Source: Leuctra nigra (taxonomy: Eukaryota; Arthropoda; Insecta; Plecoptera; Leuctridae). Taken from it: a stretch of DNA of 64,000 nucleotides. Positions within the stretch are counted from its first letter, which is position 1. The number at the start of each line of letters is the position of its first letter. The DNA lies in assembly GCA_934045905.1 (NCBI GenBank), contig OW203769.1, positions 434,001 through 498,000 of the forward strand. Reading direction: 5' to 3'. Below are positions 5,565 through 55,523 of the stretch, piece after piece. The notes below the pieces were generated by a model. It searched no databases and was not told where the DNA came from. It worked only from the letters and a program-made list of their open reading frames with translations. The translations under genes were made by a program, and so were the position numbers.

Positions 5565-5683
5565 CTAACTCCCAACTTTGCCCCTGATAATACTCCACGC
5601 TGCATCGACTGAGTTCGCCAATCCAGGGGCCACACTCTTAAGGATCCCGTTGTCAACTCGCATTATTTTGTGCCCAAATTGCG
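5565..5683 (-). CDS. Terminal exon of the minus-strand low-complexity-protein gene (phase 1 to stop)
   Basis: The minus strand has a good acceptor (AAATTTTACAG) just before 5683, and the frame then stays open to TAG at 5565-5567. The exon starts with two bases (CG) that complete a codon, so it enters in phase 1. That is exactly the exit phase of the exons at 34.1, 30.2 and 25.5 kb, and the other two frames contain stops. Its 39 or so residues (QFGHKIMRVDNGILKS near the start, SIIRGKVGS at the end) look like ordinary coding sequence with a likely amphipathic helix, unlike the Pro/Gln-rich upstream exons. I do not recognise the family. The join across 20-25 kb is inferred from phase and strand. 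The exon could instead belong to a different gene. Confidence 0.5.
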
Positions 5684-6344
5684 CTGTAAAATTTAAAATT
5701 GGATTGTAAAATATCCTTAAAAATATTTGAATATTTCTAAGCTTGTCAACAAATGACAATTCAAACGAGATATTTTTTCAGCGAAATTGCGAAATTAACA
5801 TTATCTTTCCGGAAACATTTCCGGTTCTCAATTATGATTGTGGTTCTGGTTTATACTGAAGTATTGTTTCCATTCGAAGGTGTTGCTCGTCTCTTGTTAT
5901 ATTTGGCCACGTTTAACTTCATGCGTTCTACGTGGGGAGTTGAATGGATCGCAACAGGTCTCTGGTATGACATGGCCTGTTTCAAGATCTTAGAAAACCG
6001 TGAAATAGGAAGTTATTAATTCGCCATGGGCTATGCTAATATGTAAGTAGTTAGTGCAGCAAGTAGATACATAGGTGTACTTCCATTTTAAATGAAGATA
6101 TATTTAAGTGCTCATTTCTTAATTTGGTGGCTGTGGCCGGGTAATATTTTAGCTACTTCCATCACTTTATTTCTCGATTTATTTTAATACAATTTTATTT
6201 ATGTGGTTATTTTTTAAAGTTAGGTTTGAAAAGGAAAATGATTCGTTTTCGGAGAAAATCTGACACCTAGGTCACGTCAAGATATTTTTGAATTGTAAGT
6301 TGCCATCTAAAGATTATCACAGATGAATTCCCCTGCCTACATCG
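5684..6344. other. Intron-like unique sequence
   Basis: A plus-strand frame of 88 codons at 5753-6019 overlaps this stretch but has no recognisable domain or splice context, so I do not call it a gene. Nothing else is supported here. Confidence 0.35.
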
Positions 6345-6436
6345 TAAAGTAGAACAGAAGGGTATTGCATCTCGGGAGAACTGAACTTATACGGACAATA
6401 TGACTGCTGACTAGGCAATGAAATACAAAGCCATCT

Positions 6437-6597
6437 GGGACCCCATTCCTGAAAAATATAAGAGTGTGAAAAAAAATAGTGACAGAATTGTTATCAACCA
6501 AATGGAATCCAGCAGGCTTATAGATTCTATTGGCTGGTAACGATTTTCTCACTATTTTTTCTCATACTCACTCCCACTTTTTTCAGGAATAGGGCCC
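6437..6597. mobile_element. MITE-like insertion in the left arm
   Basis: About 160 bp with long terminal inverted repeats. The left end reads GGGACCCCATTCCTGAAAAA, and the right end in reverse complement reads GGGCCCTATTCCTGAAAAAA. The pairing continues inwards through a GTGTGAAAAAAAATAGT-like stretch. The segment has no counterpart in the right arm of the surrounding inverted repeat, which supports it being an insertion. No clear target duplication was found. Confidence 0.55.
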
Positions 6598-7097
6598 TTG
6601 CTTCGATATCACCTGTACAATGAGAAGCGTCTCCTCTCCTTGCAACCAGCAATAACCACTTCCAGTATTTCCGAAGACGTCAATTGCCCGCGTAGAAGTG
6701 CGAGCTGCTAGATGCAAATCACATCGCTTGCCATGAACATTGCCAAGGTCAAAGTGCAGCGTTGGTGCGGATCCCAAAACCAGCCCTGCACAGTTCCAAT
6801 AGGCCGAACTACTGTCAATGCTTCCTCAAGTGCAATTCCAATCCTTCCCGGTGATAGGCCATCGCAGTGAAGTGATTAATGACCTTCAAAACTGACGTGA
6901 TGTGTTAAAGACCCGTGAAACAAGGAGTGTGAATAGCCTCTAGATTAAAATAGAATAGCAAACTAGAATAAACTAGAATACTAGACTAGAATAAAACTAG
7001 AATAGCCACGTGTAGCCACTACACGTATTCCATTACACCACTTTCACTTGAGAAGAAGTAACACATCTAAAAGAAGAAGATGAAAGAAGACGAAGAA

Positions 7098-7160
7098 GGA
7101 GGAGGAGGAGGAGGAGGAGGAGGAGGAGGAGGAGGAGGAGAAGAAGAAGAAGAAGAGACG
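7098..7160. repeat. (GGA)n/(GAA)n microsatellite
   Basis: An uninterrupted purine run of GGA repeats passes into GAA repeats on the plus strand at the edge of the 37-bp minisatellite. Confidence 0.95.
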
Positions 7161-7195
7161 GCCCAGCAACACAAGCTGAAATAAAATGAAACGAC

Positions 7196-7890
7196 GAAGA
7201 GGCCCAAGCGACAGGAGCTGAGAGATGAACGGAGAAGAGGCCCAGCGACAAGAGCTGAAGAAGAACGGAGAAGAGGCCCAGCGACAGGAGCTGAGAGATG
7301 AACGGAGAAGAGGCCCAGCGACAGGGGCTGAAAGAAGAACGGAGAAGAGGCCCAGCGACAAGAGCTGAGAGATGAACGGAGACGAGGCCCAGCGACAAGA
7401 GCTGAGAGATGAACGGAGAAAAGGCCCAGCGACAAGAGCTGAGAGATGAACGGAGAAAAGGCCCAGCGACAAGAGCTGAGAGATGAACGGAGAAGAGGCC
7501 CAGCGACAAGAGCTGAGAGATGAACGGAGAAGAGGCCCAGCGACAAGAGCTAAAAGAAGCACGGAGAAGAGGCCCAGCGACAGGGGCTGAAAGATGAACG
7601 GAGAAGAGGCCCAGCGACAGGGGCTGAAAGAAGAACGGAGAAGAGGCCCAGCGACAAGAGCTGAGAGATGAACGGAGAAGAGGCCCAGCGACAAGAGCTA
7701 AAAGAAGCACGGAGAAGAGGCCCAGCGACAGGGGCTGAAAGAAGAACGGAGAAGAGGCCCAGCGACAGGTGCTAAAAGAAGAATAGAGAAGACGCCCAGC
7801 GACAAGAGCTGAAAGAAGAACGGAGAAGAGGCCCAGCGACAAGAGCTGAAAAAGAAGAAATAAAAAGGGGCCCAGCAACAGGAGCTTTTG
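7196..7890. repeat. 37-bp minisatellite, about 18 copies
   Basis: The unit is GCCCAGCGACAAGAGCTGAG followed by AGATGAACGGAGAAGAG, 37 bp in all. Copies vary mainly at RAG/GGG before GCTGA and at AGATGAAC/AGAAGAAC. Because 37 is not a multiple of three and the minus-strand unit has no stop in any frame, long minus-strand frames (up to 281 codons) are open in all three frames. I interpret these frames as a by-product of the repeat, not as genes. Confidence 0.95.
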
Positions 7891-8339: not shown

Positions 8340-8450
8340 TACTAGATACTCTACCCAACACCACTCTCCTCTCATACATACTCTACTCTCTTACATTCTC
8401 TACTCTCTTGCAAACACTAGAAATGATACTCGAACTGACACAATCGCAAT
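8340..8450. repeat. TACTCTAC-type simple repeat
   Basis: Degenerate repeats of ATACTCTAC and ACTCTCTTAC words form a short pyrimidine-rich tract. There is no gene here. Confidence 0.6.
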
Positions 8451-8455
8451 CGTAA

Positions 8456-10786: not shown

Positions 10787-11050
10787 CTCGCCGGCCAGGC
10801 CCGGTCTACCATCTGAAGAAGCTGGTGATCTTTTCCTTGAGCTTCTTCAGGACGCGGCGCACTGGCCGGCAGATGACCCCCTCACGTACATGGCGTTGGG
10901 CGTGCTCGTGCGTGAGGGGCTGGCTGACAACGTGGAGCCCCGCGATGTGGGCCCGCCTAACATATTCGACTATATGGGTTGAGGCCCGTGGTGCGGAATG
11001 CGGCGGGGCCCGTGGTGCGGCATGTGGCGGGGCCGGGGCTCGTGGCGCAG
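10787..11050 (-). CDS. Exon copy of the minus-strand gene with an in-frame stop (probably dead or truncating)
   Basis: It is bounded by the acceptor TTGTCTTTTGCAG at 11051 and the donor CGAG/GTGAGTGC below 10787. The 264-bp length and the phase 1-1 borders match the exons at 25.5 and 30.2 kb. The acceptor-side intron is also homologous: the stretch GACAACACAACCTTGAACCT and the following 150 bp occur at 11056, 25719 and 30439. In the expected frame the product begins APRAPAPPHAAPRAP and then reaches TAG at 10806-10808, near the 3' border. Inclusion would therefore truncate the protein. A complementary plus-strand frame (10743-10982, containing DAAHWPADDPLTYMALGV) looks surprisingly protein-like, so the strand assignment is less secure than for its relatives. 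Confidence 0.45.
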
Positions 11051-11719
11051 CTGCAAAAGACAACACAACCTTGAACCTACTTTATAGCTTGATGCCCTTT
11101 CTAAATTAAACTTTACTCATACTCTGAAAGCAACATGCGATCTGAGGATTGGACGTTTCTTGTAACGCAGTGTTTTGTTAGCTACCTAGGTGAACCTAAA
11201 GCCCCATTTTTCAAAAGTTCTGCACATGTGCAGAATCACTTTTTCATCTCAAAAGTGACACTGCGCACGAGCAGAACGACTGTGGCACAGAAGTTGTTCA
11301 AGAAATTGCACCGTGTAAATGGGGCTTAAGAGACGTAACATTGGGGTATTGTGCGCACGCAGGTAAAGTGAGTGACGCAAAACAAAATAACCCGTTTCCA
11401 ATCCACAGATCGCATGTTCAATAACTTAGCTATAGCATTGGCAAGTTCGATCCACAATGTCAAGTTTCGAGTTTTTGAATGTCACTGGTCCCTTAAAATG
11501 TAATATTTATTTTTAAACAATTTGTATGTTCCTTTTCACTGAAAGTCACACATGTACATTACAAAGCTGGGGGCTTATTCTCGAGTTCAACCTTGTACCG
11601 AATTAGTCGACATAGCAAAATCAATATTTTCTTCAATGTTAATTTAGCTGGATCCATTGTGCAGTTGCTCAATTCCACAGGTCAACGTTTTCAACAAACT
11701 CAAGATAGGCCCGCAGACT
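11051..11719. other. Duplicated intron block
   Basis: This is minus-strand intron sequence shared with 25714-25870 and 30434-30700 on the acceptor side (AACATGCGATCTGAGGATTGG, GTTTCCAATCCACA). It is also shared with 29876-30060 on its right side (CCGAATTAGTCGAC, CAGTTGCTCAATTCCACAGG). This shows that exon duplication included flanking intron. Confidence 0.75.
11200..11326. mobile_element. MITE, 127 bp, TAA target duplication (PIF/Harbinger-like)
   Basis: The termini AGCCCCATTT and AAATGGGGCT are inverted and flanked by TAA at 11197-11199 and 11327-11329. The homologous intron at about 30580 lacks the segment. A three-base TWA duplication is the PIF/Harbinger signature. Confidence 0.6.
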
Positions 11720-13359: not shown

Positions 13360-13626
13360 GTTTGATAATGATGGAAAATTTAGTGAATCTCTCACTTAGG
13401 GATGGTGTTTTGGAGGTAACCTGCGAAATAAAAACGCGCACCCCGACTGGGAATCGAACCCAGATCCTTCGGGTTACCGGCCCTATGCTTTAATAAAGCA
13501 TAGGGCCGGTAACCCGAAGGATCTGGGTTCGATTCCCAGTCGGGGTGCGCGTTTTTATTTCGCAGGTTACCTCCAAAACACCATCCCTAAGTGAGAGATT
13601 CACTAAATTTTCCATCATTATCAAAC
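13360..13626. repeat. Perfect 267-bp palindrome containing two tRNA 3' halves
   Basis: The arms are 133 bp and meet at base 13493 with a single central base. The sequence reads GTTTGATAATGATGG inwards from 13360 and its exact complement ends at 13626. Each arm carries a tRNA-like 3' half and its trailer. I saw no mismatch in the stretches I compared. Confidence 0.9.
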
Positions 13627-13780
13627 AATCCACTCGTAGCTCAGAAGTTTGAGCATAGCCATTCGAGAGAGATGTATTCACGTTGTCAAATGAAGTCGAA
13701 GTGCTTCAGTCTTCGTGTATAGGTCAGATACTCGGACTCGCAAGAGTTGTATGGCAATCCAACCTGCTGATTAAGAATGC

Positions 13781-13852
13781 GTCCCGATAGCTTAATGGTA
13801 AAGCATAGGGCCGGTAACCCGAAGGATCTGGGTTCGATTCCCAGTCGGGGTG
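13781..13852 (+). tRNA. tRNA-like sequence, anticodon position GGT (Thr-like), probably a tRNA pseudogene/SINE head
   Basis: It folds as a full cloverleaf. The acceptor is GTCCCGA with TCGGGGT (two G-T pairs). The D-arm is GCTT/AAGC with GG in the loop. The anticodon stem is TAGGG/CCCGA (one mismatch) with loop CCGGTAA. The T-arm is CTGGG/CCCAG with loop TTCGATT. The A-box (TAGCTTAATGG) and B-box (GGTTCGATTCC) look intact, so polymerase III could read it. Oddities are C instead of T at position 33, no encoded CCA, and a GGT anticodon where nuclear eukaryotic tRNA-Thr normally uses AGT. Tandem copies show that it is part of a repeat. Confidence 0.6.
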
Positions 13853-14097
13853 CGCGTTTTTATTTCGCAGGTTACCTCCAAAACACCATCCCTAAGTGAG
13901 AGATTCACTAAATTTTCCATCATTATCAAACAATCCACTCGTAGCTCAGAAGTTTGAGCATAGCCATTCGAGAGAGATGTATTCACGTTGTCAAATGAAG
14001 TCGAAGTGCTTCAGTCTTCGTGTATAGGTCAGATACTCGGACTCGCAAGAGTATGGCAATCCAACCTGCTGATTAAGAATGCGTCCCGATAGCTTAA

Positions 14098-18525: not shown

Positions 18526-18560
<35 letters not shown>

Positions 18561-19011: not shown

Positions 19012-20144
19012 GGCCCGCTGCAAAATCTTACGCGTGTGTCTTGAAAGTACTGCAACTGTGCAACATCAGTAACGCGATTCGAGCGATACCACGTGACTAA
19101 AAATATAATCACGTTATTGTCCAAACTACTGCACTCAAAAAGTCAGGTGGGCATTTTTCTCATTAAGTAAGTGATTCTACAACTCAGTATCTTTTTTATC
19201 ACATTATTGTTGTACCGTAAAATTTTGACTTTTTTTATTTTTGAAAATAATCATATTTATTTTTGTCACGATTTAAGCCCACCTTTCACACTACAGACTT
19301 CCATAAGGGCTCATTTTGTTCACAAAAAAGGGGCGGGTGTCATGACTAAGCCCAAATTTCGATAAATTTATTCCTACTTCGACTATAGCTTTTACTAAAT
19401 CAGTAATATTTGACTGTGAAATCCGGTACGTTATATTTCTTTTTGTAAATATTTAAACAAATAATTAGAAAAAAGGCCACGTCAGCCCATAACAAGATAT
19501 CTAATGAATATTCTCTACAAGTTTCGTGTCATTCAAACAAACAGTTTTGTCTATTCTTTGTCAAAGGTAATGTCAAATGTGCATTTTACACATTTGAAAA
19601 CGTCCCGCACTTTTTTGTGGCGCCCAAAAACGATCAATGTCACTTGATATCATGTTACCAGCTCCCTCTTACGAAATATGAAGAAAATTAATATTGATTT
19701 TTTTCGGTCGAATTGCCTTAATGTATCTCCTTAGACTAAATAACTTCTAAGGTATCTCTAATCACAATTATTTCAGTGTTTTGTGCAGTTTCGACTTCCC
19801 ACTAAGAGAATTTTAAAACATCAAGTTCACACTACTTAACAATACCGGAGTAATGACGACCTGTTGACAATGTTGAATCCAGGCACACGTGGGGTGAGTG
19901 CCTCCCCTCCTTCTCCCCGGGAAAATTATCTATTTCAATAGACAACTTATTGTGTAATTCTCTCAATTATTCACAAATAAGTTAAGTGTCTTTTTAATAT
20001 ACTAAGAAACATCTTAAAAGAGTTTTCATTTATTAAAATATTGCTTATATTTGTGGTTGATTTCTATATTATCTGATGCAAATACCCAAACGGCATTTCA
20101 TATTCTGCCAAAAAAAATCCAATCCTACTTTTCCCCTACTCTCA
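19012..20144. other. Intron block, partly duplicated
   Basis: CTGCAAAATCTTACGCGTGTG (19018) and AGTTTCGACTTCCCA... to AACAATACCGGAGTA (19785-19853) recur at 30054-30203 in the same order, just before the 30.2-kb exon. The matching exon is absent here. The rest is AT-rich with no feature. Confidence 0.65.
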
Positions 20145-23100
20145 CGCCTCTTGCACTGTCAATCTTGTCATTCTAGACCTCCTTTAGATTGCAGATCTGT
20201 CCGTTACTCTCACGCCTCTTGCACTGTCAATCTTTCCTTCTAGACCTCCATTAGATTGCAGATCTGTCCGTTACTCTCACGCCTCTCGCACTGTCAATCT
20301 TGTCCTTCTAGACCTCCTTAAGATTGCAGATCTGTCCGTTACTCTCACGCCTCTTGCACTGTCAATCTTGTCCTTCTAGACCTCCTTTAGATTGCAGATC
20401 TGTCCGTTACTCTCACGCCTCTTGCACTGTCAATCTTGTCCTTCTAGACCTCCTTTAGATTGCAGATCTGTCCGTTACTCTCACGCTTCTTGCACTGTCA
20501 ATCTTGTCCTTCTAGACCTCCTTTAGATTGCAGATCTGTCCGTTACTCTCACGCCTCTTGCACTGTCAATCTTGTCCTTCTAGACCTCCTTTAGATTGCA
20601 GATCTGTCCGTTACTCTCACGCCTCTTGCACTGTCAATCTTGTCCTTCTAGACCTCCTTTAGATTGCAGATCTGTCCGTTACTCTCACGCCTCTTGCACT
20701 GTCAATCTTGTCCTTCTAGACCTCCTTTAGATTGCAGATCTGTCCGTTACTCTCACGCCTCTTGCACTGTCAATCTTGTCCTTCTAGACCTCCTTTAGAT
20801 TGCAGATCTGTCCGTTACTCTCACGCTTCTTGCACTGTCAATCTTGTCCTTCTAGACCTCCTTTAGATTGCAGATCTGTCCGTTACTCTCACGCCTCTTG
20901 CACTGTCAATCTTGTCCTTCTAGACCTCCTTTAGATTGCAGATCTGTCCGTTACTCTCACGCCTCTTGCACTGTCAATCTTGTCCTTCTAGACCTCCTTT
21001 AGATTGCAGATCTGTCCGTTACTCTCACGCCTCTTGCACTGTCAATCTTGTCCTTCTAGACCTCCTTTAGATTGCAGATCTGTCCGTTACTCTCACGCCT
21101 CTTGCACTGTCAATCTTGTCCTTCTAGACCTCCTTTAGATTGCAGATCTGTCCGTTACTCTCACGCCTCTTGCACTGTCAATCTTGTCCTTCTAGACCTC
21201 CTTTAGATTGCAGATCTGTGCGTTACTCTCACGCCTCTTGCACTGTCAATCTTTCCTTCTAGACCTCCATTAGATTGCAAATCTGTCCGTTTCTCTCACG
21301 GCTCTTGCACTGTCAATCTTGTCCTTCTAGACCTCCTTTAGATTGCAGATCTGTCCGTTACTCTCACGCCTCTTGCACTGTCAATCTTGTCCTTCTAGAC
21401 CTCCTTTAGATTGCAGATCTGTCCGTTACTCTCACGCCTCTTGCACTGTCAATCTTGTCCTTCTAGACCTCCTTTAGATTGCAGATCTGTCCGTTACTCT
21501 CACGCCTCTTGCACTGTCAATCTTGTCCTTTTAGACCTCCTTTTGATTGCAGATCTGTCCGTTACTCTCACGCCTCTTGCACTGTCAATCTTGTCCTTCT
21601 AGACCTCCTTTAGATTGCAGATCTGTCCGTTACTCTCACGCCTCTTGCACTGTCAATCTTTCCTTCTAGACCTCCTTTAGATTGCAGATCTGTCCGTTAC
21701 TCTCACGCCTCTTGCACTGTCAATCTTGTCATTCTAGACCTCCTTTAGATTGCAGATCTGTCCGTTACTCTCACGCCTCTTGCACTGTCAATCTTGTCCT
21801 TCTAGACCTCCTTTAGATTGCAGATCTGTCCGTTACTCTCACGCCTCTTGCACTGTCAATCTTTCCTTCTAGACCTCCTTTAGATTGCAGATCTGTCCGT
21901 TACTCTCACGCCTCTTGCACTGTCAATCTTGTCATTCTAGACCTCCTTTAGATTGCAGATCTGTCCGTTACTCTCACGCCTCTTGCACTGTCAATCTTTC
22001 CTTCTAGACCTCCATTAGATTGCAGATCTGTCCGTTACTCTCACGCCTCTTGCACTGTCAATCTTGTCCTTCTAGACCTCCTTAAGATTGCAGATCTGTC
22101 CGTTACTCTCACGCCTCTTGCACTGTCAATCTTGTCTTTCTAGACCTCCTTTAGATTGCAGATCTGTCCGTTACTCTCACGCCTCTTGCACTGTCAATCT
22201 TGTCCTTCTAGACCTCTTTTAGATTGCAGATCTGTCCGTTACTCTCACGCCTCTTGCACTGTCAATCTTGTCCTTCTAGACCTCCTTTAGATTGCAGATC
22301 TGTCCGTTACTCTCACGCCTCTTGCACTGTCAATCTTGTCCTTCTAGACCTCCTTTAGATTGCAGATCTGTCCGTTACTCTCACGCCTCTTGCACTGTCA
22401 ATCTTGTCCTTCTAGACCTCCTTTAGATTGCAGATCTGTGCGTTACTCTCACGCCTCTTGCACTGTCAATCTTGTCCTTCTAGACCTCCTTTAGATTGCA
22501 GATCTGTCCGTTACTCTCACGCCTCTTGCACTGTCAATCTTGTCCTTCTAGACCTCCTTTAGATTGCAAATCTGTCCGTTACTCTCACGCCTCTTGCACT
22601 GTCAATCTTGTCCTTTTAGACCTCCTTTTGATTGCAGATCTGTCCGTTACTCTCACGCCTCTTGCACTGTCAATCTTTCCTTCTAGACCTCCATTAGATT
22701 GCAGATCTGTCCGTTACTCTCACGCCTCTTGCACTGTCTATCTTTCCTTCTAGACCTCCTTTAGATTGCAGATCTGTCCGTTACTCTCACGCCTCTTGCA
22801 CTGTCAATCTTGTCATTCTAGACCTCCTTTAGATTGCAGATCTGTCCGTTACACTCACGCCTCTTGCACTGTCAATCTTTCATTCTAGACCTCCTTTAGA
22901 TTGCAGATCTGTCCGTTACTCTCACGCCTCTTGCACTGTCAATCTTTCCTTCTAGACCTCCATTAGATTGCAGATCTGTCCGTTACTCTCACGCCTCTTG
23001 CACTGTCAATCTTTCCTTCTAGACCTCCTTTAGATTGCAAATCTGTCCGTTACTCTCACGCCTCTTGCACTGTCAATCTTGTCCTTCTAGACCTCCTTTA

Positions 23101-25148
23101 GATTGCAGATCTGTCCGTTACTCTCACGCCTCTTGCACTGTCAATCTTGTCCTTCTAGACCTCCTTTAGATTGCAGATCTGTCCGTTACTCTCACGCCTC
23201 TTGCACTGTCAATCTTGTCCTTCTAGACCTCCTTTAGATTGCAGATCTGTGCGTTACTCTCACGCCTCTTGCACTGTCAATCTTGTCCTTCTAGACCTCC
23301 TTTAGATTGCAGATCTGTCCGTTACTCTCACGCCTCTTGCACTGTCAATCTTTCCTTCTAGACCTCCATTAGATTGCAAATCTGTCCGTTTCTCTCACGC
23401 CTCTTGCACTGTCAATCTTGTCCTTCTAGACCTCCTTTAGATTGCAGATCTGTCCGTTACTCTCACGCCTCTTGCACTGTCAATCTTGTCCTTTTAGACC
23501 TCCTTTTGATTGCAGATCTGTCCGTTACTCTCACGCCTCTTGCACTGTCAATCTTGTCCTTCTAGACCTCCTTTAGATTGCAAATCTGTCCGTTACTCTC
23601 ACGCCTCTTGCACTGTCAATCTTGTCCTTTTAGACCTCCTTTTGATTGCAGATCTGTCCGTTACTCTCACGCCTCTTGCACTGTCAATCTTGTCATTCTA
23701 GACCTCCTTTAGATTGCAGATCTGTCCGTTACTCTCACGCCTCTTGCACTGTCAATCTTTCCTTCTAGACCTCCATTAGATTGCAGATCTGTCCGTTACT
23801 CTCACGCCTCTTGCACTGTCTATCTTTCCTTCTAGACCTCCTTTAGATTGCAGATCTGTCCGTTACTCTCACGCCTCTTGCACTGTCAATCTTGTCATTC
23901 TAGACCTCCTTTAGATTGCAGATCTGTCCGTTACACTCACGCCTCTTGCACTGTCAATCTTTCATTCTAGACCTCCTTTAGATTGCAGATCTGTCCGTTA
24001 CTCTCACGCCTCTTGCACTGTCAATCTTTCCTTCTAGACCTCCATTAGATTGCAGATCTGTCCGTTACTCTCACGCCTCTTGCACTGTCAATCTTTCCTT
24101 CTAGACCTCCTTTAGATTGCAAATCTGTCCGTTACTCTCACGCCTCTTGCACTGTCAATCTTGTCCTTCTAGACCTCCTTTAGATTGCAGATCTGTCCGT
24201 TACTCTCACGCCTCTTGCACTGTCAATCTTGTCATTCTAGACCTCCTTAAGATTGCAGATCTGTCCGTTACTCTCACGCCTCTTGCACTGTCAATCTTGT
24301 CCTTCTAGACCTCCTTTAGATTGCAGATCTGTCCGTTACTCTCACGCCTCTTGCACTGTCAATCTTGTCATTCTAGACCTCCTTTAGATTGCAGATCTGT
24401 CCGTTACTCTCACGCCTCTTGCACTGTCAATCTTGTCCTTCTAGACCTCCTTTAGATTGCAGATCTGTCCGTTACTCTCACGCCTCTTGCACTGTCAATC
24501 TTGTCCTTCTAGACCTCCTTAAGATTGCAGATCTGTCCGTTACTCTCACGCCTCTTGCACTGTCAATCTTGTCTTTCTAGACCTCCTTTAGATTGCAGAT
24601 CTGTCCGTTACTCTCACGCCTCTTGCACTGTCAATCTTGTCCTTCTTTACCTCCTTTAGATTGCAGATCTGTCCGTTACTCTCACGCCTCTTGCACTGTC
24701 AATCTTGTCCTTCTTTACCTCCTTTAGATTGCAGATCTGTCCGTTACTCTCACGCCTCTTGCACTGTCAATCTTTCCTTCTAGACCTCCATTAGATTGCA
24801 GATCTGTCCGTTACTCTCACGCCTCTTGCACTGTCAATCTTGTCCTTCTAGACCTCCTTAAGATTGCAGATCTGTCCGTTACTCTCACGCCTCTTGCACT
24901 GTCAATCTTGTCCTTCTAGACCTCCTTTAGATTGCAGATCTGTCCGTTACTCTCACGCCTCTTGCACTGTCAATCTTGTCTTTCTTTACCTCCTTTAGAT
25001 TGCAGATCTGTCCGTTACTCTCTCGCCTCTTGCACTGTCAATCTTGTCCTTCTTTACCTCCTTTAGATTGCAGATCTGTCCGTTACTCTCACGCCTCTTG
25101 CACTGTCAATCTTTCCTTCTAGACCTCCTTTAGATTGCAGATCTGACA
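20145..25148. repeat. 68-bp satellite array, about 73 copies
   Basis: The monomer contains CCTCCTTTAGATTGCAGATC, TGTCCGTTACTCTCACGCCT and CTTGCACTGTCAATCTTGTC. Most copies are 68 bp. A 67-bp variant reads CAATCTTTCC. Every monomer carries a BglII site (AGATCT) and most an XbaI site (TCTAGA). Rare variants recur in order: TTACACTCAC at 22849 and 23931, and TCTATCTTTCC near 22738 and 23820. This reveals a higher-order duplication of 1,082 bp (16 monomers). Short frames of about 63 codons inside it are repeat artefacts. Confidence 0.97.
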
Positions 25149-25521: not shown

Positions 25522-25713
25522 TGTTTCGCCTGTGGGCCTGTGCGAGGGCCTCGTGCGCGGCCTGGTACTCGGCCAGGCCCTTGGCTTGCAGCAGGGCCTG
25601 CCGCAGCGCCTGGACATTTGGTAGGGCCTGGGCTGTGGTGGTTTTTTGCATGTTCTGCGGTGGGGCCTGTGGTGGTCCCCGAGGCGGGGCCTGGGCTATG
25701 TTACGAGGTGGAT
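25522..25713 (-). CDS. Cassette exon, 64 codons, phase 1-1 (minus-strand gene)
   Basis: The acceptor TTGTCTTTTGCAG borders 25713 and the donor ACA/GTGAGTAC borders 25522. The 192-bp frame is open. It encodes PPRNIAQAPPRGPPQAPPQN, then a more helical part (QALRQALLQAKGLAEYQAAH). It is paralogous to the exon at 30236-30433, with the same borders, the same PPR start and shared introns, and to the damaged exon at 10787. Phase 1-1 means that it can be skipped or duplicated without changing frame, which may explain why this exon type multiplied. The plus-strand frames across it are shadows of the GC-rich composition. Confidence 0.65.
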
Positions 25714-25959: not shown

Positions 25960-28900
25960 TCCCTATTACTACAACCTTTAAAAAAAATACCCTTTACAAT
26001 TTGGTTATTCTCATGAAAAAAACAAAGGTTTCATTCCAATCGGTCAACCCAGTTCCGAGATATGGCAACACTTCGGTTTTCAAAATGGCCGCTGAACTTT
26101 CTGCACTGCCACATAGAATTTATAACTATGAATTATGTGCATTATTTTTAGCTTTCTGAATATGTATTTATTGTATAGGAGAGGATTATAATGATTTATA
26201 AATTTTAATGACGTCATTTCCGGCCTCATAAATAGGAAAATTCTAGTTTGACTGTTCATATTCCATAGAGATGGCCTTCCGAATCGTTTGGCACTAGTTT
26301 CATACCGATCTGTCAACCAGTTTTCGAGATATTACGTTTCTTCCGGTTTCAAAATGGCGGCTGAAATCACTGACCTCTTGAATTATAATTTAAACATGAT
26401 TACATTTTATTAAAAGCAGTCTCAAAAAGAATATTTATTGCATCAAAATGTAAATTTGTTAGATTTTTAAAATGTGTGACGTCATTTCCGTTTTCAGTAT
26501 GGGAAACTGCAAATATTATTGATGATAATACATAAAGTTTACCATCTTAATTGTTAAGCGCTGGTTTTTTTTACAAATCTATTAAGACGTTATTAAGATA
26601 TGATGTCATTTCTGGTTTCAAAATGGCGGCTTCCGGTTGGTTTTATATCAAGTCAAATGAGATATCAAAAGAACATAAGTTACATAAATATCAAAATAAT
26701 TGGATCAAATTTGTTGCCGAAATGCCAATCGATGAATTAAATTTCATGACGTCATTTCCGGTTTCGTTAACATAAATTTAAGTCTGTTGCTATTGATAAT
26801 CCATATAGATGACCGTCCAAATCGTTTGGCGCTATTTTCGTTCCAATCGGTATAGCTGTTGTTGAGATATGACGTCACTTCCGGTTTCAAAATGGCGGCA
26901 CAAAAAATTCATGGTGTGAAGGTTAAATCAGACGCCAAAAGTGCACACGTGGTAAAAATGTGAGATCAATCGGTTCAGCCGTTTAGGCTGTGGCCTGTTT
27001 ACCGGATTTGAATTCCAGGAGACTACTACTACTACTACTAAGATCTAGTGGAGCGGTCGCTCCACCCAGCCAAGTCGTACCGTACACTCACACTCACTCA
27101 ACATACCGTAAATGACTAATAAACTGAGGAGCAGACCAACCACTTTTACTGTAAGCAACAACATGGCATTTTCGGCCTACTGGATCTTAAAATTGGAAAA
27201 TCTCACATTGTTGCGATATATCTTAATTTCGAGCTATGGCCCACCCCACTACATATACCAAATTAGGGAACAATATGTTATGCCGTTTGCGAGCTAGAGG
27301 GCCGAGAAAACAGTGAAATTACACCACTTTCTGATTCTGAAGATGATATCAGGAAACGTTGCTATCACCGCCACAGCCTAAACGGCTAAACCGATCGACC
27401 TGAAACTTTTACCACATATGCACTTTTGGCGTCTGATGATACCTTGCCTCTTGTGATTTTTTGTGCCGCCATTTTTAAACCGGAAGTGACGTCATAACTC
27501 AAAAACGTCTGGACCGATTAGAACGAAATTAGCGCCATTCGATTAAGATGGTCATCTTTATGAAGTATCAATAAAAAAAATATTATTTTCTTATTTTCTA
27601 AACCGGAAGTGACGTCATAAATACGCAATATTTAACTTATTTCAACAAATTATACTTAAAATACGTACATAATTAACTTACATTGTAACATAGACAATAC
27701 AATTTATATATTCAAGGTAGCAGTGTTCTCGGCCGCCATTCCTGAAACCGGAAGTGACGTCATATATCTAAAACGCCTGTACCGATTGCAACTGAACTAG
27801 CTCCTGCGTATTCATTCTGCTATTTATTTGAAAAATCAATTGTGAAAAATGAATAAATAAATTAATGGTACCGGAAATGGCGGCAGGAACCACTAAATGA
27901 AACCGGAAGTGACGTCATATATTACAAACGGCATGACCGATTTTACGGAAATATAGGGATTAGGAATTCAGATGGTCGTTCATGAAGGTATCAACTAGAT
28001 AAAACTAGATTGTTTTCTTATTACCTATACCGGAATTCGGCCGCTATTTCAAAACCGGAAGTGACGTCATGTATCGAAAACGGCTGGATCGATTATAACG
28101 AAACTTAAGCTATTCTTCTTGGATAATCATTGTCATCTTACCAAACGCAACTTTTCATAGTAACCAAATCGGTTGAGGCGTATTTTTTTAAAGAAATTAG
28201 TCCCTGCTCGGACATGTGCTACAAGCTGTATGTATAAACTAACAAAAGAAGTGATATCCCAGAAAAAACACTCCGTGTAAAAATACCAGCCAAGTATCTT
28301 TAACAATTAAAAAAAATAGAAGAAATCTAAAAATTCAGCACTGAAAAGGAGTGATATCAAAAAAGGAGCCAAGTCAACGAATTTTCCAAATTTTAATCGT
28401 ACCATTGAAATAAAAATATCAACCCCCGAGAAATACTTAAAAAAAGGACTTGGCGCATCGTTTTTTTAAAGTCATTTTTCTATTCTTAAGCTTAAGCCAC
28501 TCACATACTACGTAGTTCAGAAATGCCTAGAAAAATTGGGACAAAACTTTCAAATTAAATATTGAACATTCTGTAAAATATTTTAAATTTAAATATAAGT
28601 ACGCAAAGAAACATAGCATTGTCTTACAAGCAATAAATACAGAACAGTTGTGTTTGTGATTGGTAGGTACCTATAGTTTTGTGGGTACATCAACATACCT
28701 ACTACAGCATTATACTTGGAACCTTCTCGCCGTGTAATTAATTGCTATTAATTAACATTTTATACCAAAAAAATTCATAAATTACATAACGTATTACTTT
28801 AGATAAAAATCTAGTCAGTAATTGTTTGAGCAGCATGGCTCAGTGCACTAGTCACTTATACAAATCTCATTGACGGCCTTCTTGTAATGAGCGCTTTCGC

Positions 28901-29545
28901 TATTTCCCTCAGTCACGATATTGAGAAGTATGATTGATTAATATGACCCTAGAAATAGTGGCAATAACGAATAGACTAGGCCGCTTCCGTTTATTCGTTA
29001 TTCGTTTATCCGTTTATTTCCTCTGAATATTGACAAAATACCAAAACTGCCAGTAGGTAAGAGTACTAGTTATATTAAAACGTAGTATGATTCGTCGATA
29101 ATGAATGTGATATACTCAGGAAAATATACTTGTAGAGTTCTTCCTATACTTTTAGGATAGAAAAGTGTCTTTAAAAAAACGATGCGCCAAGTCCTTTTTT
29201 TAAGTATTTCTCGGGGGTTGATATTTTTATTTCAATGGTACGATTAAAATTTGGAAAATTCGTTGACTTGGCTCCTTTTTTGATATCACTCCTTTTCAGT
29301 GCTGAATTTTTAGATTTCTTCTATTTTTTTTTATAGTTAAAGAGACTTGGCTGGTATTTTTACACGGAGTGTTTTTTCTGGGATTATTATTATTATTATG
29401 AAAACCGCCCTAAAACACTGTTTTCACGGCCCTCTAGCGTGCAAAGGGCGTAACCTAATGTTCCTAAATTTGGTATATGTTGTAGGGTGGGCCATAGCTC
29501 GAAATTAAGATATATCGCAACAATGTGAGATTTCCCAATTTGAAA
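25960..29545 (+). mobile_element. Helentron/HINE-like element 3 (forward, both ends truncated) hosting element 4
   Basis: The left piece, about 25960-27043, starts inside the family (CTTTAAAAAAAATACCCTTT) and carries ETS/CRE modules near 26212, 26478, 26748 and 26870, then a CTA microsatellite. The right piece, from 29384, resumes with the ATT run and GAAAACCGCCCTAAAACACTG and stops near 29545. The intact relative at about 48899 reads CTACTAAGATTATTATT across this point, proving that the pieces were once joined. Confidence 0.75.
27044..29383 (-). mobile_element. Helentron/HINE-like element 4 (reverse), full length, 2,340 bp
   Basis: The 3' terminus TCTAGTGGAGCGGTCGCTCC lies at 27044 and the 5' terminus TTTTTTCTGGGA ends at 29383. 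Insertion was between A and T of the host element without target duplication, as shown by the uninterrupted relative near 48899. One T could belong to either side. Internal modules have CCGGAAGTGACGTCAT near 27479, 27602, 27748, 27901 and 28054. The 5' foldback block (28257-29383) is the long-loop type. The last 1.9 kb is nearly identical to element 9 at 56345-58252. Confidence 0.8.
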
Positions 29546-30235
29546 TATCGCATGCCGTGAAGAAGGTCAGTTTCACCAATGATGTCGTCATTTATTTGTT
29601 CAGATAAAGATAGGTTTAAAAAGTGTGAAATCACGTAGAAACGTACTAAATTCATTCCTGAGATTCTAAATTTTCCTGGGGCTGTGCGCCCCAGACCCGC
29701 ATGGTCCTGGGGGGGCTCTTCCCACCAGCCCCCCATTGTTTCTCTTGGCAGTCGTGTTTCCCACGCACATTGTCATTTACTGTGTTATTTTCTCCCTTTC
29801 TACCTAGATCCTAAGCAAAATGTGCCCCCCCCCCCCCCCCTGAGAAAATAGATTTCGGCGTCCCTGTCACTGAAAGCCCAACTGTACATTACAAACCAGG
29901 GTCTTATTCTTGAGTTCAACCTTGTGCCGAATTAGTCGACTTTGCAAAATCAATCTTTAGTTTCTTCAATGTTAATTTTTGCAGGATCCATTATTGTGCA
30001 GTTGCTCAATTCCACAGGTCAACATTATCAACAAGCTCAAGAATAGGCCCACTGCAAAATCTTACGCGTGTGAACAACTTAATTAAATTCATAGTTTACT
30101 GTTATCTCTATTCACAATTATTTCAGTGTTTTGTACAGTTTCGACTTCCCAGTAAGGGAATTTTAAAACATCAAGTTCACACTACTCAACAATACCGGAG
30201 TATTGTCACTTGAATTACATGTTTTATGTACTCAC
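29546..30235. other. Intron with duplicated block and C-tract
   Basis: A transposon-like phrase CTGGGGCTGTGCGCCCCAGA lies near 29679 and a run of about 18 C at 29824. Positions 29876-30070 match 11566-11720, and 30110-30203 match 19755-19853, both same-orientation copies of the intron. Confidence 0.6.
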
Positions 30236-30433
30236 TGTGAGGCTCGTGGGCCGGGCGCAGGGCCGGGTGGTCGGCCAGGGCCTCTGCCAGGGCCTTGGCG
30301 AGGAGTAGGGCCTGCCCTTCTGTCATCGGCGGGGCCTCGTGCTTCCGCGACGAGGGCCCCGCTTTTAGGGCCTTGTTTGGGGAAGGCTTGGCCGGTTGTA
30401 GGGCCTGTGGCTCGGCCTGGGCACGAGGCGGAT
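30236..30433 (-). CDS. Cassette exon, 66 codons, phase 1-1 (minus-strand gene)
   Basis: The acceptor TTGTCTTGTGCAG borders 30433 and the donor CACA/GTGAGTAC borders 30236. The frame is open and encodes PPRAQAEPQALQPAKPSPNK, then SSRKHEAPP, then an alanine/leucine-rich helix (EGQALLLAKALAEALADHPA). Joined to the 34-kb exon, which leaves one base, and to the next phase-1 exon, it keeps the frame. Its GC content contrasts sharply with the introns. No known domain is recognised. Two other frames across the exon are also open because of its composition, so the choice rests on splice-site phase. Confidence 0.65.
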
Positions 30434-34125: not shown

Positions 34126-34639
34126 GGCGTCGTAGCCAGCGGTCAATGTCGGCTGCGGTAAGTGGGCCCTGCGTGGAGGCCTGCGGGGGGCCTTGCAGGG
34201 GGGCCTGCTGGGTGGCCTGCGTGGAGGCCTGCGGGGGGCCTTGCAGGGTGGCCTGCGTGGAGGCCTGCGTGGAGGTCTGCGTGGAGGCCTGCAGGGTGGC
34301 CTGCGTGGAGGCCTGCTGGGTGACCTGCGTGGAGGCCTGCAGGGTGGCCTGCGTGGAGGCCTGAGTGGAGGCCTGCAGGGTGGCCTGCGTGGAGGCCTGC
34401 TGGGTGACCTGCGTGGAGGCCTGCGTGGAGGCCTGCTGGGTGGCCTGCGTGGAGGCCTGCGGGGGGCCTTGCAGGGTGGCCTGCGTGGAGGCCTGCGTGG
34501 AGGCCTGCAGGGTGGCCTGCGTGGAGGCCTGCGTGGAGGTCTGCGTGGAGGCCTGCGTGGAGGTCTGCGTGGTGGCCTGCGGGGTGGCCTGCGTGGAGGC
34601 CTGCTGGGGGCCTTGCAGGGTGGCCTGCTGCGACTGGCG
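34126..34639 (-). CDS. Minisatellite-coding exon, 171 codons, phase 0 to 1 (minus-strand gene)
   Basis: The acceptor TTTTTTTACACAG borders 34639 and the donor CGCC/GTGAGTTT borders 34126. The coding strand is a 12-bp repeat encoding Gln-Ala-Ser-Thr with variants (QATLQGPPQASTQ), ending in a non-repetitive LTAADIDRWLRR. It enters in phase 0 and leaves one base, so it is the only exon able to connect the 0-0 exons at 49-55 kb with the 1-1 exons at 30 and 25 kb. The Q/T/S/A-rich product is predicted disordered. The GC-rich repeat also leaves long frames open on both strands, which I regard as shadows. Confidence 0.65.
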
Positions 34640-49193: not shown

Positions 49194-49287
49194 TATTTTA
49201 TGAAAACAAAAAAATTGTTTATGAAAAACAATATTGCCTATTGGTATTGGAATCTGTTATTGATAACGTGAAGTGGTGTGAGCTTAC

Positions 49288-49431
49288 CTCTGAGGGCGAG
49301 GGCGAGGGGCCTGGAGAAGATGGGGGGGAGGCCGCCATCTTCTTGGGGGGTGTCGCATCCTCATCACTCTCACTTCCCTGGCCCTGCAATAGCGCAGGCG
49401 CAGGAAGCTTGCTTGGCCGCCTTGGCGCAGC
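49288..49431 (-). CDS. Exon A1, 48 codons, phase 0-0 (minus-strand gene)
   Basis: The acceptor TTGTTTCTTGCAG borders 49431 and the donor AGAG/GTAAGC borders 49288. It encodes APRRPSKLPAPALLQGQGSE, an acidic SESDED patch, then ATPPKKMAASPPSSPG and a Pro-Ser tail. It is a paralogue of the exon at 51452-51580: DEDATPPKKMA versus DDEATPPKKMA, with matching intron sequence on both sides. The acidic patch before PPKK resembles a casein-kinase-2 site beside a basic nuclear signal, an inference only. Confidence 0.7.
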
Positions 49432-50489: not shown

Positions 50490-50672
50490 CGAGGCAGGCG
50501 GTGGCGACGCTCCTGGGGCCATGATGGGGGAGAACGGCCAATCTGACTCGTCACGAGCCAGCCTGGCCGGCGGGGTGGACGGCGCCGACGAGGATGATGT
50601 GGTGGACGGCGCGTTCTTGGCCCGGCGCTTGGCCCGGCGCTTGGCTTGGCGCTTGGACTTCGGGTTGTGAAT
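50490..50672 (-). CDS. Exon B1, 61 codons, phase 0-0 (minus-strand gene)
   Basis: The acceptor TCGTTTCACAG borders 50672 and the donor CCTCG/GTAAGATC borders 50490. It encodes a strongly basic start (NPKSKRQAKRRAKRRAKN), a Ser/Pro linker, DESDWPFSP and GASPPPAS. It is a paralogue of the exon at 51987-52127. The basic run could be a nuclear localisation signal. Exons A and B occur as an alternating pair duplicated in tandem (B2-A2-B1-A1 in transcription order). Confidence 0.7.
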
Positions 50673-51451: not shown

Positions 51452-51580
51452 CACTGATGGCGAGGGCGAGGGGCTGGGGGAAGATGGCGGGGACGGCGCC
51501 ATCTTCTTTGGTGGCGTCGCTTCGTCGTCGCTCGAGCCCATTGTTGGAGGTGCCGTTCGCTTCAACCCCCGTGGCAAAGC
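51452..51580 (-). CDS. Exon A2, 43 codons, phase 0-0 (minus-strand gene)
   Basis: The acceptor TTGTTTCTTGCAG borders 51580 and the donor AGTG/GTAAGC borders 51452. It encodes ALPRGLKRTAPPTMGSSDDE, then ATPPKKMAPSPPSSPS and a Ser-Pro tail ending in V. It is shorter than A1 by five codons, yet the frame is retained, which argues for selection on reading frame. Its upstream and downstream intron sequences match those of A1 (CCTATTGGTATTG near 49233 and 51400). Confidence 0.7.
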
Positions 51581-51986: not shown

Positions 51987-52127
51987 CGAGGCAGGCGAGG
52001 CCGGTGGGGCGGACGACGGAGTCGAGGGCAGCCGTGCCGTGTTCTCGGCCCGCTTCTCCGCCTGCTTCTTGGCCTGCTTCTTGGCCAGCCGCTTGGCCTC
52101 GAACACCTTCTTGGTCTTCTGGTTGGA
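51987..52127 (-). CDS. Exon B2, 47 codons, phase 0-0 (minus-strand gene)
   Basis: The acceptor TTGTTTCACAG borders 52127 and the donor CCTCG/GTAAGATC borders 51987. It encodes NQKTKKVFEAKRLAKKQAKK, then QAEKRAEN and a Ser/Pro tail ending APPASPAS. The Lys/Ala periodicity suggests a charged single alpha-helix. It is 14 codons shorter than B1 but in frame, and it shares the donor and following intron (ATCACGTTCAATCTACTTCA on the minus strand). Confidence 0.7.
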
Positions 52128-52418
52128 CTGTGAAACAACAACAACACATCAGCTTTCTCTCCAACTTGCTCGGCCTGTACTTGATGTCAACACTAAAACA
52201 CGCGACACTAGCAAGTGTTGGCACATCAACATATTCATTTCATCTACATTTTCAAAGCCCTAGTTGACAATTTTCATGATGTATTTTCAATTAGCTGGAA
52301 ATATATATTACTATTTGATTCTGTAAAATGTTATTTTATTTTCGGTTGAACTTTATATTTGAGGTGTAACCTGTTGTGACCCATGGTACTTGTATTTGCA
52401 ATTTTGTCCGTTTTGTCC

Positions 52419-53251
52419 GTATGGCACGTATGGCCGCCTCAGTGGGAGTGATATTCTGTTTCAAGTGAACTCACCATCGCCTCCTCGTCTGTGTCTGGGC
52501 GGAGTCCGAGACTACGTATGGCACGTATGGCCGTCTCAGTGGGAGTGATATTCTGTTTCAAGTGAACTCACCATCGCCTCCTCGTCTGTGTCTGGGCGGA
52601 GTCCGAGACTACGTATGGCACGTATGGCCGTCTCAGTGAGAGTGATATTCTGTTTCAAGTGAACTCACCATCGCCTTCTCGTCTGTGTCTGGGCGGAGTC
52701 CGAGACTACGTATGGCACGTATGGCCGTCTCAGTGAGAGTGATATTCTGTTTCAAGTGAACTCACCATCGCCTCCTCGTCTGTGTCTGGGCGGAGTCCGA
52801 GACTACGTATGGCACGTATGGCCGTCTCAGTGGGAGTGATATTCTGTTTCAAGTGAACTCACCATCGCCTCCTCGTCTGTGTCTGGGCGGAGTCCGAGAC
52901 TACGTATGGCACGTATGGCCGTCTCAGTGAGAGTGATATTCTGTTTCAAGTGAACTCACCATCGCCTCCTCGTCTGTGTCTGGGCGGAGTCCGAGACTAC
53001 GTATGGCACGTATGGCCGTCTCAGTGGGAGTGATATTCTGTTTCAAGTGAACTCACCATCGCCTCCTCGTCTGTGTCTGGGCGGAGTCCGAGACTACGTA
53101 TGGCACGTATGGCCGTCTCAGTGAGAGTGATATTCTGTTTCAAGTGAACTCACCATCGCCTCCTCGTCGGTGTCGGGCGCGGAGTCTGAGACTACGTATG
53201 GCACGTATGGCCGTCTCAGTGGGAGTGATATTCTGTTTCAAGTGAACTCAC
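52419..53251. repeat. 97-bp tandem array of an exon 3' part plus its splice donor, 8 copies
   Basis: Each unit contains GTATGGCACGTATGGCCGTC, GTGATATTCTGTTTCAAGTG and AACTCACCATCGCCTCCTCG. On the minus strand this is the last 50 or so bases of the exon at 53252-53416, its donor (GATG/GTGAGTTC) and the start of its intron. The copies lack the acceptor and carry a small deletion (CGCCCAGACACAG for CGCGCCCGACACCG) that changes frame. They are therefore not exons but a row of eight extra strong donors downstream of the true one. Confidence 0.85.
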
Positions 53252-53416
53252 CATCGCCTCCTCGTCGGTGTCGGGCGCGGAGTCTGAGACGACGTATGGC
53301 ACGAACTCGGCCATCTCCATCTCCTCTCCCTCGGCCTTGGGCAATGTCCACCACATTGAGACGGGTTGTGGGTTCGGCCGCAGTCCGTACCGATCAGTCG
53401 GTCTCCTGCGCGGCGT
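53252..53416 (-). CDS. Exon, 55 codons, phase 0-0 (minus-strand gene)
   Basis: The acceptor TTTGTTTGCTCAG borders 53416 and the donor GATG/GTGAGTTC borders 53252. It encodes TPRRRPTDRYGLRPNPQPVS, MWWTLPKAEGEEMEMAEF and an acidic end (SDSAPDTDEEAM). This is the least repetitive exon of the group and therefore the best query for homologue searches. Its 3' end was the source of the 97-bp tandem array just downstream. Confidence 0.7.
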
Positions 53417-53603
53417 CTGAGCAAACAAACATCTCGTTATAGCATCACACTGGTTGCTAGGTTGGTAAGTTTACATTTCATTGAAACATGAATCAGAGCT
53501 TTAGTGTGAGAGATGTTAAACCCGAGTGAAAATGTCTGGGTTTTTCCAGCGGGTTGAACCCTGGGAAATGTGACATGGAGTTGATTTCCACAATGTTATG
53601 TAC

Positions 53604-54377
53604 CTTGTGCTTGGGCCACAGGGCCTGCCTGATGGCGTCCACCAGCTGCATGCCCTTGCCCTGGGTCGCGGGGGCGTTGTTTGGCCCACCGGGGGCATTA
53701 CTGGGGCCGGGGGCATTACTGGGGCCGGGGGCATTGCTTGGGCCTGGGGCCATCTGAGCAATGCCAGCGCGCTTCTTCTCCACCTTCTCCTGGGTCGCGG
53801 GGGCGTTGTTTGGCCCACCGGGGGCATTACTGGGGCCGGGGGCATTGCTTGGGCCTGGGGCCATCTGAGCAATGCCAGCGCGCTTCTTCTCCACCTTCTC
53901 CTGGGTCGCGGGGGCGTTGTTTGGCCCACCGGGGGCATTACTGGGGCCGGGGGCATTGCTTGGGCCTGGGGCCATCTGAGCAATGCCAGCGCGCTTCTTC
54001 TCCACCTTCTCCTGGGTCGCGGGGGCGTTGTTTGGCCCACCGGGGGCATTACTGGGGCCGGGGGCATTGCTTGGGCCTGGGGCCATCTGAGCAATGCCAG
54101 CGCGCTTCTTCTCCACCTTCTCCTGGGTCTCGGGGGCGTTGTTTGGCCCACCGGGGGCATTACTGGGGCCGGGGGCATTGCTTGGGCCTGGGGCCATCTG
54201 AGCAATGCCAGCGCGCTTCTTCTCCACCTTCTCCCGGGTCACGGGGGCGTTGTTTGGCCCACCGGGGGCATGACTGGGGCCGGGGGCATTGCTTGGGCCT
54301 AGGGCCATCTGAGCAATGCCGGTCTTCTTTACCATCTTCCTCAAGGCTTCCCGGATCATCCCCTTGCCTTTTGGTTT
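53604..54377 (-). CDS. Large repeat-bearing exon, 258 codons, phase 0-0 (minus-strand gene)
   Basis: The acceptor ATTATCTGTTACAG borders 54377 and the donor CAAG/GTACAT borders 53604. The frame opens KPKGKGMIREALRKMVKKTG, then has five full and one partial 37-residue repeats. Each holds APGPSNAPG motifs, GGPNNAP, then TQEKVEKKRAGIAQM, alternating Pro/Asn-rich linkers with basic helices. It ends KGMQLVDAIRQALWPKHK, which resembles the opening helix. The repeats differ at few positions (ETQ/ATQ/VTR), so expansion is recent. Other open frames on both strands across the repeat are shadows of a 111-bp unit lacking stops. Confidence 0.75.
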
Positions 54378-54401
54378 CTGTAACAGATAATATCAGGTTA
54401 A

Positions 54402-55112
54402 GGGAGGACAATGGTGAAAATCCTAAAATCTACAGTAAGAATGCAATGGCTGTGAAATTTTAAGGGTTTACTAACACAAGAAAAAGGATTTAATTTTAAT
54501 TTTTTTCATTAAAAAAAAATCAAAATTTTGGCTTCTAGACAATTTTTTATTTAAAAAAAGGTGAGTTTCGTTGGTACAGTTTTATTTCCACATTTTTTGT
54601 GATAACAAAATTAAAAAATTATTTGATGGAATATAAAAACATAATTAACAATCTGGTAAGAGGAATTTTTGAAATAATATTTTTTACCTGCACAAAAAAA
54701 TTATCAAAAAAAATAATAAATTATATTAAAGCAACACTATTGGTTACAAATTTATTGTAGAAGAATGAAGTACAATATGGCAAAAAGGCTCTTTCAGTAC
54801 CTTTATAACCCATTCATGGACATACAAAAAAAAAATGAAGACAATCGCACAAGAACTTTTTGAGATAAATTCGCATCATCAGTAAATTTTATATAAATAA
54901 ATATATATATATAATAGCATATATGAAATATTGTACTCCATTAGAAAGCATTGCATTATCACAGTAAAACAATTATATACAGTATCTTACAAGGGAAAAT
55001 ACTACTTAAAAGAGTTAATTTCTATTTTATAAAAGTTATATAGACAAAATTTTGAAATAATTTTTTTTTTGAAAATATAAAATTTTGGTAGAAATTTCAC
55101 CATTGTCCTCCC
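54402..55112. mobile_element. 711-bp TIR element at an exon breakpoint
   Basis: GGGAGGACAATGGTGAAAAT at 54402 and its inverted copy (ATTTCACCATTGTCCTCCC ending 55112) bound an AT-rich, TA-repeat-containing core. TTAA precedes the left end (54398-54401). The homologous intron at 55523-55555 has CAGGTCGTTAACC at that place. The right end has no TTAA and instead abuts coding repeat of the next exon copy. Confidence 0.65.
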
Positions 55113-55523
55113 TGGGGCCATCTGAGCAATACCAGCGCGCTTCTTCTCCACCTTCTCCTGGGTCGCGGGGGCGTTGTTTGGCCCACCGGGGGCATTACTG
55201 GGGCCGGGGGCATTGCTTGGGCCTGGGGCCATCTGAGCAATGCCAGCGCGCTTCTTCTCCACCTTCTCCTGGGTCGCGGGGGCGTTGTTTGGCCCACCGG
55301 GGGCATTACTGGGGCCGGGGGCATTGCTTGGGCCTGGGGCCATCTGAGCAATGCCAGCGCGCTTCTTCTCCACCTTCTCCCGGGTCTCGGGGGCGTTGTT
55401 TGGCCCACCGGGGGCATTACTGGGGCCGGGGGCATTGCTTGGGCCTGGGGCCATCTGAGCAATGCCGGTCTTCTTTACCATCTTCCTCAAGGCTTCCCGG
55501 ATCATCCCCTTGCCTTTTGGTTT
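55101..55523 (-). CDS. Duplicate of the large repeat exon, 3'-truncated by a transposon end
   Basis: The acceptor (CTGTTACAG) and first codons (KPKGKGMIREALRKMVKKTG) are the same as the exon at 53604-54377. Three full 37-residue repeats and the start of a fourth follow, then the sequence passes into the TIR element at 55112. The original 3' border (KGMQLVDAIRQALWPKHK and donor) is missing. The transposon end offers a possible donor, ACAATG/GTGAAAT at 55101, which would keep phase 0. Without it the frame runs to a stop within the element. The first exons of the gene must lie further right, outside what I can identify. Confidence 0.55.

What the first reader, a model, noticed from the sequence alone, without database searches (positions are those of the whole stretch)
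5565..55523. A hidden minus-strand gene: twelve splice-bounded low-complexity exons whose phases chain
GC-rich islands scattered over 50 kb each lie between an AG acceptor and a GT donor on the same strand. Their phases fit one transcript: six or seven 0-0 exons (49-55 kb), one 0-1 exon (34 kb), 1-1 exons (30, 25 and damaged 10.8 kb), then a phase-1 terminal exon with a stop. The only 0-1 exon sits exactly where the phase changes. Seen directly: borders, phases and open frames. Inferred: one gene, with a disordered, possibly nuclear product. ORF-based annotation would miss it because no exon starts with its own ATG and simple-repeat masking would hide it.
Basis: partly seen in the sequence, partly recalled or inferred. 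Interest (0 to 1): 0.9.

Follow-up and report, generated by a model that had tools for sequence, protein, structure and literature searches.

The report
Orphan gene of fast-changing duplicated exons
Scattered GC-rich patches in this animal-like DNA look like the exons of one gene for a floppy, repeat-built protein, and its duplicated exons have changed faster than the intron edges beside them.

Summary
Ten GC-rich islands on the minus strand (10.8-54.4 kb) lie between acceptor- and donor-like sites, with open phases that chain 0-0 (49-54 kb), 0-1 (34 kb), 1-1 (30, 25 kb) and 1-stop (10.8 kb). A scan for GC-rich open AG...GT islands gives 11 on the minus strand, 2 on the plus strand, and 2 and 3 in two controls. 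One exon pair shows coding constraint: 12 of 15 differences at third codon positions.

Two of the twelve exons fall away. The 55.5 kb exon is a copy cut off by an inserted element; the 5.6 kb exon is not distinguishable from chance.

New here: the exons arose by tandem duplication of exon-intron units, and most intron edges at the splice sites are far more alike than the exons, even at fourfold sites in two pairs. Further into the introns this fades in several flanks. Venom toxin gene families show a similar pattern. Three protein searches found no homologue.

Best reading: a rapidly evolving gene with symmetric, skippable exons and a mostly disordered product. No transcript data were available and the species is unknown.

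The parts
55101..55523 (-). Truncated copy of exon A; its 3' end and donor are lost at an inserted element
   Evidence: 55111-55544 is 98.8% identical to 53965-54398; ends at inverted repeat GGGAGGACAATGGTGAAA
54402..55112 (.). Inserted element of about 0.7 kb with 18-bp terminal inverted repeats (borders approximate)
   Evidence: both ends carry GGGAGGACAATGGTGAAA in inverted orientation
53604..54377 (-). Exon A, 0-0, 258 codons, 37-aa repeats between two predicted helices
53252..53416 (-). Exon B, 0-0, 55 codons
52418..53303 (-). 97-bp minisatellite over the 3' end and donor of exon B; 9 copies of GATG|GTGAGT
51987..52127 (-). Exon C1, 0-0, basic Lys/Ala-rich
51452..51580 (-). Exon D1, 0-0, acidic serine cluster plus Pro/Ser-rich tail
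50490..50672 (-). Exon C2, 0-0, duplicate of C1
   Evidence: donor-side intron 90% identical to C1
49288..49431 (-). Exon D2, 0-0, duplicate of D1
   Evidence: 12 of 15 differences at third positions in the ungapped tail
34126..34639 (-). Exon E, 0-1, 24-bp (8-codon) Gln/Thr/Ser/Ala repeats; phase switch
30236..30433 (-). Exon F1, 1-1
25522..25713 (-). Exon F2, 1-1, duplicate of F1; two helices predicted at low confidence
19753..19855 (-). Relic of the F intron (94% to 30103-30205) with no exon found next to it: presumed lost copy F3
10806..11050 (-). Exon F4, phase-1 entry, chimeric (only its 5' part is F-like), in-frame TAG at 10806-10808; likely end of the reading frame
5565..5683 (-).

Best explanation
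This is the 3' part of one minus-strand, spliceosomal protein-coding gene in a metazoan-like genome; its 5' end was not found and may lie beyond 55.5 kb or outside the window. It grew by tandem duplication of exon-intron units (C-D twice, F four times with one exon lost, A twice with one truncated) and by coding minisatellites inside exons. Repeats and satellites then spread the exons over about 44 kb. Exons within a block share one phase, so any of them could be skipped or added without breaking the frame, and the protein is a string of exchangeable, mostly disordered modules with short helices. Shown from sequence: borders, phases, duplication, third-position constraint in D, exon divergence above that of the intron edges. 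Inferred: transcription, joining of all ten exons in one mRNA, alternative inclusion, disorder in the cell, and that the exon divergence is adaptive.
For: Minus-strand excess 11 against 2, 2 and 3. Splice sites in the top few percent. Phases chain; 226 of 200,000 random assignments do. D1/D2 tail: 12 of 15 differences at third positions, p=0.0003; dN/dS 0.36 for D and 0.62-0.86 for the other four pairs. Acceptor-side 150 bp of the F copies 88-94% identical, donor side of C 90%. Fourfold sites: D 7 of 17 differ against 8 of 112 intron sites; F1/F2 4 of 10 against 4 of 111. Unit duplication is also seen as intron relics at 19.8 and 11.5-11.7 kb. Disorder: A mean pLDDT 51.8; 68-85% disorder-promoting residues in the A, C, D, E, F1 and F2 peptides, 56-60% in B and F4.
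Against: No transcript; no homologue; none of 10 exon peptides reaches a Pfam cut-off; no first exon or promoter was found. Only the D pair shows clear coding constraint; differences in C and F are spread over the three codon positions. F2/F4 align no better than codon shuffles (16 of 200 score as high). No island passes the scan in the 14.6 kb between D2 and E, so two genes are possible. The intron edges are conserved over limited lengths: beyond the first 30 bp the D donor side, C acceptor side and F donor side fall to exon level or lower. Intron stretches were walked until they diverged, which favours conserved stretches.
Confidence: 0.72

Rival explanations
1. Two or more separate genes: a 0-0 block at 49-54 kb and another gene at 10.8-34 kb, with the phase fit a coincidence.
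For: 14.6 kb without an island that passes the scan between them; different residue make-up of the two blocks.
Against: Exon E enters in phase 0 and leaves in phase 1 and so fits both blocks, though it is open in a second frame as well. No start or end signal between them was searched for.
Confidence: 0.15
2. A decaying pseudogene or relic: the exons were once coding and now drift, which explains the high divergence, the truncated 55.5 kb copy, the lost F3 exon and the stop in F4.
For: Truncation and lost exon; F exons near the shuffle level in matches.
Against: Nine of the ten exons are open throughout in the chaining frame and the tenth, F4, up to its TAG; D keeps a third-position bias; drift alone should not leave intron edges better conserved than exons.
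Confidence: 0.08
3. GC-rich repeat islands that are not exons; AG and GT borders are chance and the conserved flanks are ends of mobile elements.
For: Much of the window is repeats; several islands are minisatellites.
Against: Strand asymmetry 11 to 2; within the window the flanks match only at exon copies or unit relics, apart from matches of 22-33 bp.
Confidence: 0.05

Closest known systems
Viperid three-finger toxin genes, accelerated segment switch in exons (ASSET; PMC2474615, passages read)
   Same: Intron segments of duplicated copies stay >85% alike while some exon segments become unlike.
   Different: There whole genes are duplicated and the cysteine positions are kept; here exons are duplicated within one locus, the product looks disordered and has almost no cysteine. 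No venom role is implied.
Aphid bicycle genes (PMC9168663, passages read)
   Same: Rapidly evolving, many internal exons of one phase, found by gene structure rather than similarity.
   Different: Bicycle exons are unusually small and almost all of phase 2; here 0-0 and 1-1 blocks with exons of 129-774 bp.
Titin PEVK region, elastin, treacle (recalled, not tested)
   Same: Many symmetric exons encoding short low-complexity modules, in part of alternating types, often alternatively spliced.
   Different: No relation was shown: no Pfam family above cut-off and no homologue.
Internal tandem repeats at exon-intron boundaries of human genes (PMC2812944, abstract and other passages read)
   Same: A minisatellite across an exon-intron border, as in the 97-bp array of exon B.
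   Different: There transcription evidence was examined for the altered introns; here there is none.

Membership tests
Spliceosomal protein-coding gene | GT-AG borders with open, chaining phases on one strand | tested here: met
   for ten of the twelve exons claimed
Spliceosomal protein-coding gene | Spliced transcript | not testable with these tools
   no RNA data
Spliceosomal protein-coding gene | Purifying selection on the reading frame | tested here: inconclusive
   clear for D (12 of 15 differences at third positions); weak for C and F
ASSET-type accelerated exon evolution | Introns of copies more alike than exons | tested here: met
   for most intron edges; not for the C acceptor side (22 of 30 in the nearest bin), and fading within 30-60 bp in several flanks
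ASSET-type accelerated exon evolution | Cysteine frame of the three-finger fold | tested here: not met
   one cysteine in the eleven peptides analysed
ASSET-type accelerated exon evolution | Signal peptide | not tested
   the N-terminus was not found
Aphid bicycle genes | Almost all internal exons of phase 2 and very small | tested here: not met
   phases 0 and 1, lengths 129-774 bp
Known protein families (Pfam) | Match above curated cut-off | tested here: not met
   10 peptides (A, B, C1, D1, C2, D2, E, F1, F2 and the 5.6 kb one): three sub-threshold matches, best E 0.048; the 10.8 and 55.5 kb exons were not scanned

The most novel reading that the evidence does not exclude
A single gene that works as a diversification cassette: exon copies with strongly conserved intron edges but rapidly replaced coding content, joined in varied combinations because all copies in a block share one phase, so that one locus makes many disordered protein variants. 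The intron edges would be kept because they guide splicing or template exchange between copies.
Probability: 0.12. Interest if true: 0.8.

Novelty: new variant of a known kind. Interest (0 to 1): 0.45.

Why it matters
If it is expressed, it is an orphan gene of a sort that annotation with repeat masking may lose. It would also be a clear case, inside one gene, of exons diverging faster than their own intron edges, synonymous sites included. That asks whether the edges are constrained or homogenised, or the exons hypermutable, which resequencing of individuals could answer.

Tried and rejected
Homologues: three protein searches (813-aa A-to-F2 chain scored over residues 200-560; 254-aa B-to-D2 chain; 249-aa chain from the tail of E to the stop of F4): none at E<=1, <=10 and <=10. 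Searches scored only the 8000 candidates sharing most words, all 4385. The search reaches only relatives sharing exact 5-residue words, and how many eukaryotes the database holds is unknown. PDB sequence search with the 254-aa chain: seven beta-lactamase sequences at E 0.94-0.99, taken as chance. Rfam: one tRNA only. I tried to name the organism from a repeat element in viral and prokaryote contigs: no match. The organism stays unknown.

Considered 60-bp micro-exons in the 97-bp array of exon B (seven of the eight units read are open with length 60): rejected because the candidate acceptor scores about -3 in the three units scored and the introns would be 37 bp.

Poly(A) signals do not choose between the 10.8 and 5.6 kb ends: AATAAA 505 bp after the 5.6 kb stop; no AATAAA but ATTAAA from 482 bp within 3 kb after the 10.8 kb stop.

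Papers: the listings gave nothing used. PMC2474615 (listed), PMC2812944 and PMC9168663 were read as passages only; PMC2711939 was seen only in a listing. Splice matrices are recalled textbook frequencies.

Full report
Setting. The window is 37% GC outside the proposed exons and is full of satellites, minisatellites and dispersed repeats. With its long introns it looks like an invertebrate or similar genome (my inference); no tool named the organism.

The observation. Each exon was re-derived from the sequence. A 53604-54377, B 53252-53416, C1 51987-52127, D1 51452-51580, C2 50490-50672 and D2 49288-49431 are open in frame 0 with lengths divisible by three; E 34126-34639 is 0-1; F1 30236-30433 and F2 25522-25713 are 1-1; the 10.8 kb exon F4 enters in phase 1 and meets TAG at 10806-10808. 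Several exons are also open in a second frame. A scan for GC-rich open AG...GT islands found 11 on the minus strand (these ten plus the 55.5 kb copy), 2 on the plus strand, and 2 and 3 in the reversed and complemented controls. With paralogues collapsed, 226 of 200,000 random phase assignments chain. So it is more than chance, with the reservation that the matrices were recalled, the thresholds were set after the exons had been scored, and 4 of the 11 best-scoring boundaries differ from those.

What does not hold. The 55.5 kb exon copies the first 413 bp of exon A and 21 bp of its intron (98.8% over 434 bp), then stops at the end of an element with 18-bp inverted repeats; its donor GTGAAATT is part of that repeat. 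The element's other end abuts TTAA, and TTAA also stands at the matching place upstream of the 55.5 kb copy. I infer tandem duplication of exon A, insertion at TTAA, then a deletion up to the element. The 5.6 kb exon has nothing to mark it out from other acceptor-plus-ORF combinations.

How it was built. D1/D2, C1/C2 and F1/F2/F4 share intron flanks. The F unit also left intron relics at 19753-19855 (94%) and 11530-11712 (85%), so I infer that a fourth F copy lost its exon. F4 is F-like only on its acceptor side and in its early exon; its later part does not align well and its donor-side intron has no match to F in the window. Exons A and E hold coding minisatellites (111 and 24 bp), and B's donor lies in a 97-bp array with nine identical donors.

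Exons against introns. In the 30 bp next to the splice sites, copies match at 29, 22, 29, 29 and 30 of 30 on the acceptor side and 29, 30, 27, 25 and 26 of 30 on the donor side (pairs D, C, F1/F2, F1/F4, F2/F4); full exon bins range from 11 to 26 of 30. C1/C2 is weak on its acceptor side. Further out the F acceptor side and the C donor side stay high (20-30 of 30), but the D donor side, the C acceptor side and the F donor side fall to 8-24 of 30. By alignment score, exon pairs beat all 200 codon shuffles in 4 of 5 comparisons; F2/F4 does not. Synonymous divergence is 0.66-1.02 (inflated by alignment of low-complexity sequence). In ungapped blocks, fourfold sites differ at 7 of 17 (D) and 4 of 10 (F1/F2), against 8 of 112 and 4 of 111 in the introns, p=0.0007 and 0.0015. 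Only these two pairs were tested in this way; the blocks were chosen by me and intron stretches were walked until they diverged, so the ratio is an upper view. Plain positive selection would raise nonsynonymous change only. Extra synonymous change points to exchange or slippage of exon segments, or to constraint or homogenisation of intron edges. The passages of PMC2474615 describe the like for venom toxin genes.

The product. Peptides are rich in Pro, Ala, Ser, Gln and Lys; the eleven peptides hold one cysteine in all. Single-sequence models give exon A mean pLDDT 51.8 with its better-scored helices at residues 5-19 and 241-253, and F2 64.4 with helices at 31-42 and 46-61; without an alignment these are weak. 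C exons are basic; D exons hold SSDDE or SESDED before PPKK. Nuclear location is possible but untested. Exons have lower CpG o/e (0.68) than the rest (0.89), which would fit germline gene-body methylation but also composition.

Verdict. A spliced protein-coding gene is the best account (0.72). It is an orphan by the three searches made; whether it is annotated anywhere was not testable here. Its interest lies less in being hidden than in the reversed conservation of exons and intron edges inside one gene.

Noticed in passing
20137-25145: 68-bp satellite, about 74 copies, 97% matches, sitting between F2 and the relic F3 intron.
   Followed up: no
13494-14097: 305-bp tandem duplication with a tRNA-Thr (GGT) gene or tRNA-derived repeat at 13781-13853; shorter copies at 16.2-16.3 kb.
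   Followed up: no
27043-29385 and 55894-58254: 2.36-kb repeat, 97% identical, in an intron and upstream of the exons; one of many dispersed repeats in the window.
   Followed up: no
52418-53303: 97-bp array carrying nine identical splice-donor-like sites.
   Followed up: partly
7196-7851: 37-bp minisatellite, 17.7 copies, open in several minus-strand frames.
   Followed up: no
63218-64000: 67-bp satellite running to the window end.
   Followed up: no
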